64,000 bases of DNA from Cupriavidus sp. MP-37 (GTDB lineage Bacteria; Pseudomonadota; Gammaproteobacteria; Burkholderiales; Burkholderiaceae). Below, piece by piece: positions 11,418-16,649 of this stretch (within the stretch, counting starts at the first letter, position 1; the number at the start of each line of letters is the position of its first letter). Where the stretch lies: positions 2,193,001 through 2,257,000 of the forward strand of contig NZ_CP085344.1 in the NCBI RefSeq assembly GCF_020618415.1. Direction: 5' to 3'. A program made the position numbers and the translations under genes. The notes under the pieces were generated by a model. That model searched no databases. It worked only from the letters and a program-made list of their open reading frames with translations, and had not been told where the DNA came from.

Positions 11418-12008
11418 ATGCCTGACCCGAACCTCTCTTTCTTTGGCCGGCTCTCGCTTGCCATGGGAACGTTCTTCGCCATCCTGGGCGACCGCGAGCT
11501 GGCCGCCGGCATCAAGCGCCTGCGCACGGGCGAAGCCGCTGTACCGGCGGCCCCGGTGCCTGCTCCGGCGCCGGCTGCCGCGCCGGTTGCCGCGCCAGTT
11601 GCAGAACCTGCGCCGGCACTGAAGGAAGCCAGCCCCGTGGCCGCGCTCCAGTTGCTCGCCCTGCTCCAGCGCGACGCCCGCTTCGTCGACTTCGTCGAGG
11701 AAGACATCGCGCGCTATGCCGATGCCGAGATCGGCGCCGCCGCGCGCCTGGTGCACGATGGCTGCCGCGCGGTGCTGCGCGAGCATTTCACCATCCGCCC
11801 GGTGCGCGAGGAAGCCGAGGGCAGCCGCGTGACGCTGGCCGACGGCTTCGACGCCGGCGCAATCCGCCTGACCGGCAACGTGGTCGGCAGCGCGCCGTTC
11901 CATGGCGCCCTCAGCCATCGCGGCTGGAAGGTCGAGGAAGTGCGCCTGCCGCGCCTGGCCGAGCGCCATGACGCCAGCGTGATCGCCCCCGCCGAGGTGG
12001 AGCTATGA
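11418..12008 (+). CDS. DUF2760 domain protein, first gene of an Hsp70 pair operon
   Basis: 196 residues with two parts. A short N-terminal segment (NLSFFGRLSLAMGTFFAILGDRELAAGIKRL) is followed by an alanine/proline linker (~40-70) and a conserved C-terminal domain (~75-190) of the DUF2760 type, with LQLLALLQRDARFVDFVEEDI and the LTGNVVGSAPFHGALSHRGW motif. There is no known activity. The first segment could be a membrane-associated amphipathic helix. GAGGAG lies 8 bases upstream of the ATG. The stop overlaps the start of the next gene (ATGA), so translation with the Hsp70-like protein is coupled. A partner or substrate adaptor of the two Hsp70s is a reasonable guess. Confidence 0.75.
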   Translation: MPDPNLSFFGRLSLAMGTFFAILGDRELAAGIKRLRTGEAAVPAAPVPAPAPAAAPVAAPVAEPAPALKEASPVAALQLLALLQRDARFVDFVEEDIARYADAEIGAAARLVHDGCRAVLREHFTIRPVREEAEGSRVTLADGFDAGAIRLTGNVVGSAPFHGALSHRGWKVEEVRLPRLAERHDASVIAPAEVEL

Positions 12009-13852: not shown

Positions 13853-16649
13853 TCCCGCGGCGGCGGCGATGAAGCAGTACATCGTCGGCATCGACCTTGG
13901 CACCAGCAACACGGTGGTGGCCTACGCCCGGGCCGGCGCCGACGAGATCCGCGTGTTCGACATCGACCAGCTGGTTGCCCCCGGCGAGGTCGCGGCCCGC
14001 CCGCTGCTGCCCTCGGTGCGCTACCACGCGGCGCCGGGCGAGCTCAAGGGCGATGACCTGCAGTTGCCGTGGCAATCGGCCGCCAGCGCCGCCGCGCGCC
14101 GCACCGTGTTCGGGCGCCTGGCGGCGACGCTGGGCGCGCAGGTGCCGGGCCGGCTGGTGGCCAGCGCCAAGAGCTGGCTGTCGCATGCCTCGGTCGACCG
14201 CACCGCGCCGATCCTGCCGTGGGGCGGCGAGGAGGATCTCGACAAGATTTCGCCGGTGGTCGCCAGTGCGAGCTACCTCGGCTACGTCTGCGCCGCCTGG
14301 AACCACCGCTTCCCCGACGCGCCGCTCGAACAGCAGGACGTGGTGCTCACCGTGCCGGCCTCGTTCGACGAGGGCGCGCGCGCGCTGACGCTGGAAGCCG
14401 CGCGCCTCGCGGGCCTGCCGGCGCTGCGGCTGCTGGAAGAGCCGCAGGCCGCGCTCTACGACTGGCTGTTCCACCATCGCCACACGCTGGACCAGGACCT
14501 CGCGCAAACCCGCCTGGTGCTGATCTGCGACGTCGGCGGCGGCACCACCGACCTCACGCTGATCCGCGTGGCGATGCAGGACGGTCAGCCGCAGCTGACA
14601 CGCATTGGCGTGGGCAACCACCTGATGCTCGGCGGCGACAACATGGACCTGGGGCTGGCGCATCAGGTCGAAGCGCGCTTGGGCGGCGGCGCGCCGGCGC
14701 AGCCCCGCCTGTCGGCCGCCAGCCTGTCGCAGCTGGTGGCGCGCTGCCGCGCCGCCAAGGAGCAACTGTTGGGCGCGGACGCGCCCGATGCCGTCAACGT
14801 GACGCTGCTGGGCGCGGGCTCCCGGCTGGTTGGTGGCGCGCGCTCGGTGCAGGTGACGCGGCAGGAAGTCGAACAGCTGGTGGTCGACGGCTTCTTCCCC
14901 AGGGTGCCGGCCAGCGATCGGCCACGGCGCGCGCACGGCGCCATCGTCGAGTTTGGCTTGCCCTATGCCGCCGACCCCGCCGTGACCCGCCACGTCGCCG
15001 CCTTCCTGGGCCAGCATGCCGCACAAGCGCGCGCCGCGCTCGGGATGGAGGACGCGCCGGACGAGGCGCTGCCGGTGCCCGACACGCTGCTGCTCAACGG
15101 CGGCGTGTTCCGCGCGCAGGCACTGGCCGGGCGCATCGCCGAGACGCTGGGCGACTGGCGCGGCGCGCCGCTGCAGGTGCTGCACAACGCCGATCCCGAC
15201 ATTGCCGTGGCCCGCGGCGCGGTCGCGTACGCGCGCGCACGCGCGGGCGAGGCGCCGCGCATCGGCGGCGGCTCGGCGCGCAGCTATTTCCTGGTGCTCG
15301 ACGATGGCGCCGCGGGCCAGCAAGGGATCTGCCTGCTGCCGCGCGGCACCGAGGAAGGCCACGAAATCCATCTGAGCGACCGCACCTTCGCCTTGCGGCT
15401 CGGCCATCCGGTGCAGTTCCACCTGGTTTCGTCGGTGGCCGAGACGCCCTACCAGCCCGGCGCGCTGACCGACCTGTCCGGCGGCGACTTCGTGCGCCTG
15501 CCGCCGATCGCTACCGTGGTGCCCACGCGCGGCGCCGGCGGCCCGCGCGAAACGCCGGTGCAGATCACCACCGCGCTGACCGAGGTCGGTACGCTCGAAG
15601 TCCACTGCATCAACATCGAGGATGCCGCGCAGCGCTGGCGCCTGGAGTTCCAGTTGCGCGGCAACGACGCCGCGGCGGCGCCCCCGGCGCCGACGGCTCA
15701 CCCGTCGCTGCCGCAGGCGCTGGAGCTGATCGACCGCACCTTCGGCGCGCGCTCGCAGGAGGTCGGGCCGAAGGAGGTCAAGCGCCTGCGTGCGCAGCTG
15801 GAGCAGATCCTGGGCGCGCGCGAGCAATGGCACAGCGCGCTGCTGCGCGAGCTGTTCGGCGCCTTGTGGGAGCGCGCCCGGCGCCGCCGCCGCACGGCCG
15901 ACCATGAGCGCCTGTGGCTAAACCTGGCCGGCTATTGCGTGCGTCCCGGCTTCGGCTATCCGCTCGACGAATGGCGCGTCGCGCAGCTCTGGTCGCAGTA
16001 CGACCAGGGCATCCAGTACGTCAACGAAAGCCAGAACTGGTCGGAATGGTGGACGCTGTGGCGGCGCGCCGCCGGCGGGCTGGACGAAAGCGCGCAGCTG
16101 CGCCTGCTGGAAGACATGGCCTTCTACCTGCAGCCGCCGGGCAGCGCGCACTTCAAGAAGCCGGCCGGGCCCACCCGTGGCGGCTATGCCGACATGGTGC
16201 GGCTGGCCGGCTCGCTCGAGCGCCTGCCCGTCGATGCCAAGACCGAACTGGCCGAGTGGCTGCTGACCCGGCTGCGCAAGCCGTCCGAGAACAACCAGGG
16301 CTGGTGGGCGGTGGGCCGCATCGGCGCGCGCATGCCGTTCTACGGCAGCGCGCACAGCGTGGTGCCGGCCGACACCGCCGGCAAATGGCTGGATGCCATC
16401 CTCGCGCTCGACTGGAAAAAGGTCGAGCCGGCCGCGTTCGCCGCGGTGCAGATCGCGCGCATGACCGGCGACCGCACCCGCGACCTGCCGGACCAGATGC
16501 GCGCGAACGTGGTGCGCCGGCTGGAAGCCGCCAACGCGCCGCCAGGCTGGATCGCCATGGTGCGCGAGGTGGTGGCGCTCGATGCCGCGGACGAAGGACG
16601 GGTGTTCGGCGAGGCGCTGCCGGCGGGCCTCAAGCTGATCGCGGGATAG
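13845..16649 (+). CDS. large Hsp70 family protein with C-terminal DUF3731-type extension
   Basis: 934 residues: an Hsp70 ATPase (phosphate loops GIDLGTSNTVV near residue 15 and ICDVGGGTTDLTL near 225; LLEEPQAALYDW; LLNGGVFRAQ), a beta-rich region to about 610, then a ~320-residue helical C-terminal extension (SLPQALELIDRTFGARSQEVG onward) matching the DUF3731 type seen on such proteins. The extension is rich in Trp and Arg and is far larger than an Hsp70 lid. The chosen ATG overlaps the previous gene by 8 bases; a second ATG eight codons later (13869) is an equally likely start, since neither has a clear ribosome site. Together with the two genes before it this makes a three-gene operon of unknown function. 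Confidence 0.85.
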   Translation: MPDPAAAAMKQYIVGIDLGTSNTVVAYARAGADEIRVFDIDQLVAPGEVAARPLLPSVRYHAAPGELKGDDLQLPWQSAASAAARRTVFGRLAATLGAQVPGRLVASAKSWLSHASVDRTAPILPWGGEEDLDKISPVVASASYLGYVCAAWNHRFPDAPLEQQDVVLTVPASFDEGARALTLEAARLAGLPALRLLEEPQAALYDWLFHHRHTLDQDLAQTRLVLICDVGGGTTDLTLIRVAMQDGQPQLTRIGVGNHLMLGGDNMDLGLAHQVEARLGGGAPAQPRLSAASLSQLVARCRAAKEQLLGADAPDAVNVTLLGAGSRLVGGARSVQVTRQEVEQLVVDGFFPRVPASDRPRRAHGAIVEFGLPYAADPAVTRHVAAFLGQHAAQARAALGMEDAPDEALPVPDTLLLNGGVFRAQALAGRIAETLGDWRGAPLQVLHNADPDIAVARGAVAYARARAGEAPRIGGGSARSYFLVLDDGAAGQQGICLLPRGTEEGHEIHLSDRTFALRLGHPVQFHLVSSVAETPYQPGALTDLSGGDFVRLPPIATVVPTRGAGGPRETPVQITTALTEVGTLEVHCINIEDAAQRWRLEFQLRGNDAAAAPPAPTAHPSLPQALELIDRTFGARSQEVGPKEVKRLRAQLEQILGAREQWHSALLRELFGALWERARRRRRTADHERLWLNLAGYCVRPGFGYPLDEWRVAQLWSQYDQGIQYVNESQNWSEWWTLWRRAAGGLDESAQLRLLEDMAFYLQPPGSAHFKKPAGPTRGGYADMVRLAGSLERLPVDAKTELAEWLLTRLRKPSENNQGWWAVGRIGARMPFYGSAHSVVPADTAGKWLDAILALDWKKVEPAAFAAVQIARMTGDRTRDLPDQMRANVVRRLEAANAPPGWIAMVREVVALDAADEGRVFGEALPAGLKLIAG

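What the first reader, a model, noticed from the sequence alone, without database searches (positions are those of the whole stretch)
11418..16649. DUF2760-Hsp70-Hsp70/DUF3731 operon: a candidate undescribed chaperone system
Three genes with overlapping ends encode a small DUF2760 protein and two different Hsp70 ATPases with complete nucleotide sites. One Hsp70 has a ~320-residue C-terminal extension far larger than a normal lid. There is no J-protein or nucleotide exchange factor beside them, so DUF2760 and the extension may replace these. To my knowledge their function is not established.
Basis: partly seen in the sequence, partly recalled or inferred. Interest (0 to 1): 0.7.

Follow-up and report, generated by a model that had tools for sequence, protein, structure and literature searches.

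The report
Candidate membrane-tethered twin-Hsp70 operon
Three genes that stay together in many bacteria encode two unusual relatives of the protein-folding machine Hsp70 and a small, probably membrane-attached partner that faintly resembles Hsp70's known helper GrpE; what they do has not been shown.

The parts
11418..12008 (+). DUF2760 protein, 196 aa (a GTG start at 11409 would give 199 aa)
   Evidence: PF10816, E 1.1e-54
11418..11528 (+). DUF2760 N-terminal hydrophobic segment, aa 1-37 (predicted helices 8-22 and 26-37, low confidence): candidate membrane attachment
   Evidence: model; hydropathy (window's own close relatives mostly fall just under the cut-off)
11529..11630 (+). DUF2760 Ala/Pro-rich linker, aa 38-71
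   Evidence: alignment; low pLDDT
11631..12005 (+). DUF2760 core, aa 72-196: helices then beta strands, C-terminal IAPAEVEL tail; weak GrpE-like fold
12005..13852 (+). H1: Hsp70-family protein, 615 aa, NBD plus SBDbeta-like domain, no lid
13412..13849 (+). H1 linker replacement (RIRGGTAR) and SBDbeta-like domain to the C-terminus
13845..16649 (+). H2: Hsp70-family protein with DUF3731, 934 aa (start could also be the Met at aa 9)
13878..15242 (+). H2 nucleotide-binding domain, about aa 12-466
   Evidence: model; VIA-align
15270..15656 (+). H2 SBDbeta domain, about aa 476-604
   Evidence: model; VIA-align
15708..16607 (+). H2 helical C-terminal domain (aa 622-921); Pfam DUF3731 covers aa 685-931

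Best explanation
The operon encodes a self-contained Hsp70 machine. DUF2760 sits at the inner membrane by its hydrophobic N-terminus and reaches into the cytosol on a flexible linker. Its folded core binds the nucleotide domains of H1 and H2 and regulates their cycle, most likely as a GrpE-like nucleotide exchange factor. H1 (lidless) and H2 (lid replaced by helical DUF3731) are ancient duplicates that bind segments of client proteins near the membrane through SBDbeta-like domains. They work without canonical J-proteins. Shown: co-inheritance, gene order, domain make-up, conserved ATPase motifs, loss of the canonical linker, absence of HPD in DUF2760. Inferred: membrane attachment (hydropathy only), exchange activity (weak fold match and context), J-independence (residue losses), clients.
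Confidence: 0.42

Rival explanations
1. DUF2760 is a membrane adaptor or ATPase activator (a functional stand-in for a J-protein), not an exchange factor. It localises and loads the two Hsp70s, perhaps by its nearly fixed C-terminal tail docking in an SBDbeta groove or on DUF3731.
For: Membrane-like N-terminus; a PAEVE-type pattern ends within six residues of the C-terminus in 331 of 339 rows; J-protein contact residues lost in H1; GrpE profile tests negative.
Against: No HPD in 339 rows; in the model the tail is part of the beta domain (strands 188-190 and 192-195), which is also how the GrpE matches place it.
Confidence: 0.25
2. H1 and H2 act on each other like an Hsp70-Hsp110 pair: H2, with its large C-terminal domain, is the exchange factor or scaffold for H1, and DUF2760 only tethers them.
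Against: DUF2760-H1 exists without H2 on the Thiodictyon plasmid record, though its chromosome was not searched; both NBDs keep complete ATPase motifs.
Confidence: 0.15
3. H1 and H2 are extra Hsp70s that use the housekeeping DnaJ and GrpE of the cell, and DUF2760 is a client or unrelated passenger.
For: The genome has DnaJ, and GrpE; R167 is kept in 81 of 98 H2.
Against: DUF2760 is in the same 20 of 249 genomes as H1 and leads the operon in 97 of 97 complete loci, also on plasmids; linker and Q378 are lost in both Hsp70s.
Confidence: 0.1
4. The trio is an anti-phage or plasmid-conflict module.
For: Patchy distribution, 20 of 249 genomes; present on plasmids; the Thiodictyon pair lies next to genes annotated as anti-phage and near a TIR gene.
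Against: PADLOC gives one weak candidate-family match per Hsp70, over about 90 NBD residues, and none for DUF2760. No match in 50,697 phage records. Neighbours differ in the loci I inspected. In Vibrio the probable operon is under HapR.
Confidence: 0.05

Closest known systems
DnaK-DnaJ-GrpE machine
   Same: Hsp70 NBD and SBDbeta collinear in H2; ATPase motifs conserved; DUF2760 weakly GrpE-like in fold
   Different: No VLLLD linker; no SBDalpha lid in H1, DUF3731 instead in H2; no J-protein recognised in the operon; DUF2760 not GrpE by sequence
HscC with DjlB/DjlC (E. coli)
   Different: DjlB/DjlC are J-proteins; DUF2760 has no HPD, and its hydrophobic part is N-terminal
Yeast Snl1, BAG-domain exchange factor anchored in the ER membrane
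   Same: Precedent for a membrane-anchored exchange factor (PMC3962485, start of abstract in the listing)
   Different: BAG domain, eukaryotic; not in an operon with its Hsp70s (recalled)
Hsp110/Grp170 exchange factors
   Same: Hsp70 relative with an enlarged C-terminal part beside an ordinary-length Hsp70; Hsp110 NBD among the structural rows (6gfa)
   Different: DUF3731 has no match to that C-terminal part shown here; no test of exchange activity; H2 keeps a full ATPase site

Membership tests
Hsp70 superfamily (H1, H2) | Actin-like NBD with phosphate and adenosine motifs | tested here: met
Hsp70 superfamily (H1, H2) | SBDbeta domain after the NBD | tested here: met
   H2 model aligned to aa 600-605 with full-length DnaK/BiP; H1 by 41% identity to H2 across it, no H1 model made; sequence profiles of these parts find no SBD in the PDB
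Hsp70 superfamily (H1, H2) | Conserved DVLLLD-type interdomain linker | tested here: not met
   Absent in 36 of 36 aligned rows and 99 of 99 H1
Hsp70 superfamily (H1, H2) | SBDalpha lid | tested here: not met
   H1 has 2-15 residues after the last SBDbeta strand, 99 of 99; H2 has DUF3731 there; whether DUF3731 contains a diverged lid is open
DnaK or HscA equivalog | NCBIfam curated cut-off | tested here: not met
   H1: HscA 79.8 of 708.55 bits, DnaK 55.7 of 822.55; H2: HscA subfamily 91.5 of 620
GrpE (DUF2760) | Match to Pfam PF01025 or to GrpE by sequence profile | tested here: not met
   Window protein has no GrpE match at E up to 10; for the other 62 members only 25 of 42 families are shown, GrpE not among them; hhalign and own profile tests at chance level; no GrpE among PDB sequence hits
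GrpE (DUF2760) | Helix plus C-terminal beta-wing fold | tested here: inconclusive
GrpE (DUF2760) | Dimer and nucleotide exchange on Hsp70 | not testable with these tools
   Needs biochemistry or complex prediction
J-domain protein (DUF2760) | HPD motif | tested here: not met
   0 of 339 rows
Known anti-phage system | PADLOC match over most of the proteins | tested here: not met
   Only PDC-M61B, about 90 NBD residues, E 5e-7 and 6.6e-4; none for DUF2760

The most novel reading that the evidence does not exclude
A separate class of bacterial Hsp70 machine: two J-protein-independent Hsp70s, one lidless and one with a DUF3731 helical domain, driven by a membrane-anchored GrpE-type exchange factor (DUF2760) too diverged for sequence methods to link to GrpE, and spread between bacteria as a three-gene cassette.
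Probability: 0.3. Interest if true: 0.8.

Novelty: new variant of a known kind. Interest (0 to 1): 0.62.

Why it matters
A review counts three types of prokaryotic Hsp70, DnaK, HscA and HscC, and describes J-proteins as targeting factors (PMC8215388, passages). An Hsp70 pair without the canonical linker that J-domains contact, inherited with its own probable membrane co-chaperone, would test whether an Hsp70 cycle can run without J-proteins. It would also give two widespread families of unknown function, DUF2760 and DUF3731, a common and directly testable role.

Tried and rejected
Sequence proof of DUF2760-GrpE homology failed: hhalign, profile against PDB sequences, Pfam at E up to 10, own gapped profile alignment with shuffled, reversed and unrelated controls. 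An ungapped window scan put the C-terminal strands (VIAPAEVEL against LLRPAMVGV) at rank 3 of 22,620 nine-column pairs (rank 9 of 22,932, 9 of 22,310 and 33 of 21,696 for 8, 10 and 12 columns), a helix window (DGCRAVLRE against EGVELTLKE) at rank 1, and YDADEYRLTGNV against FDPNLHQAVSQV at rank 2 of 21,696 twelve-column pairs, all in the same order along both proteins. The anchored pair was chosen after I had seen the motif, the other pair I expected (HRGW with GY) ranked 484th or lower, and the gapped test was not significant, so I do not count this as proof.

The PDB hit 5dmp at E 0.1 was taken as chance. Profiles of the SBD-like parts and DUF3731 gave only chance-level PDB sequence hits. 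A first DnaK alignment was discarded because antisense frames had been picked; it was redone, where the 416-aa Hsp70-like ORF of the genome could not be recovered by my pattern and was left out. A loose linker pattern flagged 18 of 99 H1; one search showed all 18 lie at the phosphate-2 strand. The order count of 94 of 97 used start positions; by stop positions it is 97 of 97. Seven of 339 DUF2760 rows lacked my core pattern and were left out of the TM count. Of the VC1373-1375 paper hits, PMC4159263 and PMC9608740 were name coincidences; PMC9717686 reports a metagenomic Hsp70 family fragment with cold tolerance but no link to this family was shown. The viral-contig scan gave 48 loci; I examined two: L179 looks chromosomal (ClpS/ClpA-like neighbours by my own reading) and L180 holds a lone H1-like gene; the other 46 were not examined.

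Full report
Place. The window belongs to a Cupriavidus-like genome: its DUF2760 protein has 94% identity to one of Cupriavidus alkaliphilus, and the nearest H2 locus is C. alkaliphilus at 97%. The three genes start 37 bases after an rpoD-like gene, overlap each other, and are followed by a PCMT-family gene. A simple promoter and terminator scan of 11200-11500 found nothing.

Conservation as a unit. In an even sample of 249 genomes of the phylum, DUF3731 occurs in 19, DUF2760 in 20 and H1-type proteins (E up to 1e-40) in 20. They are the same genomes; the one without DUF3731, G026, has its H1 at a contig edge. None of the 14 control genomes has DUF3731 or DUF2760. A second genome of the window's own genus, G210, lacks the trio. 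In 74 of 99 loci the first start of H1 overlaps the DUF2760 stop by 4 bases. L130 has two other ORFs between H1 and H2, one of them a sodium/calcium exchanger family member. Surroundings vary: rpoD precedes the trio in 10 of 81 loci and PCMT follows in 5 of 81, some loci being cut by contig ends. Names given to distant DUF2760 relatives include Magnetococcales, Rhodospirillales, Stellaceae, Chthoniobacteraceae and Terrimicrobiaceae. On plasmids, 11 of 72,556 records carry DUF2760 and H1, and 10 of these a match to over 80% of H2; two are conjugative Bradyrhizobium plasmids, and several of the rest are Burkholderia or Caballeronia replicons over a megabase. The exception, Thiodictyon pTs485, has only DUF2760-H1. 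No phage record has an H1 match at E up to 1e-20.

What is known elsewhere. No held paper holds the words DUF3731 or DUF2760; further term searches listed no description of such a system, but most subscription papers are not held, and the bacterial J-protein survey cited as Barriot et al. 2020 was not seen. In one of the five f17 loci (L121) a CHASE-GGDEF gene lies divergent from DUF2760; another, L126, has an exonuclease there. V. cholerae CdgM (VC1376) has the CHASE-GGDEF architecture and a similar length (PMC12051071, passages), and VC1373 and VC1374 are annotated DnaK-related (PMC5816637 and PMC9201469, passages). So VC1375-VC1373 is very probably this operon; I did not see its sequence. 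The VC1375 promoter is activated by HapR in vivo and in vitro (PMC10328515, passages), and VC1373-1375 is listed in a screen for in-biofilm-repressed genes (PMC9201469, passages). VC1374 is listed at log2 -2.68 in a polymyxin B table (PMC5636140, passage). These point to growth-phase or quorum control in that lineage and give no biochemical function.

Mechanism proposed. DUF2760 holds the pair at the membrane; H1 and H2 cycle on clients there; DUF2760 resets them by nucleotide exchange. The DUF2760-H1 plasmid version suggests that DUF2760 acts first on H1 and that H2 with DUF3731 adds a client-handling or scaffold role; whether that strain has an H2 elsewhere was not tested. The first step rests on hydropathy, the second on fold and motifs, the third on weak fold similarity. 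None is shown by experiment.

Genome background. The genome has seven HSP70-family matches at six places: two strong ones (by position and score DnaK and HscA, my labels), H1, H2, and weaker ones at C1:70725 and C2:1995440. It has one DnaJ-domain match over the cut-off, beside the DnaK match, and one below it, beside the HscA match. This fits Hsp70s that do not each have a dedicated J-protein.

Noticed in passing
L239 (Thiodictyon pTs485) 1-11726: A two-gene DUF2760-H1 version without H2 lies between genes annotated as anti-phage (DUF1156, phospholipase D-like) and a TIR-domain gene. A 'DnaK-related protein' is also listed in a proteome table of this organism (PMC6413534, passage); whether it is this gene was not checked.
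   Followed up: partly
L238 (Bradyrhizobium pCB82_1) 2387-10898: On a conjugative plasmid the intact trio is followed about 1 kb later by annotated groES and groL.
   Followed up: no
L180 5944-7794: A contig of the viral collection (157 kb) carries a lone H1-like gene with no DUF2760 or H2 found in the 13.8 kb stretch held.
   Followed up: partly
L130 8287-10833: Two ORFs, one a sodium/calcium exchanger family member and one that reads like a porin (my reading), sit between H1 and H2.
   Followed up: no
window 9260-11418: The rpoD-like sigma factor gene ends 37 bases before DUF2760 with no terminator-like site in the scan; same-strand rpoD precedes the trio in 10 of 81 loci. Co-transcription with rpoD is possible.
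   Followed up: partly
G018, G026, G030 (same family f36) and G002, G022, G037: These six genomes have an additional, weaker GrpE match (61-68 bits) besides the strong one; three of them have DUF2760 and three were not among the DUF2760 carriers.
   Followed up: no
G000 C2:1995440-1996597: A further Hsp70-like open frame of 600 aa in the window's genome that begins GLDFGTSNS and ends soon after the NBD.
   Followed up: no
window 28944-29040 (-): ARAGORN reports a tRNA with a four-base anticodon and no amino acid, probably a false positive.
   Followed up: no
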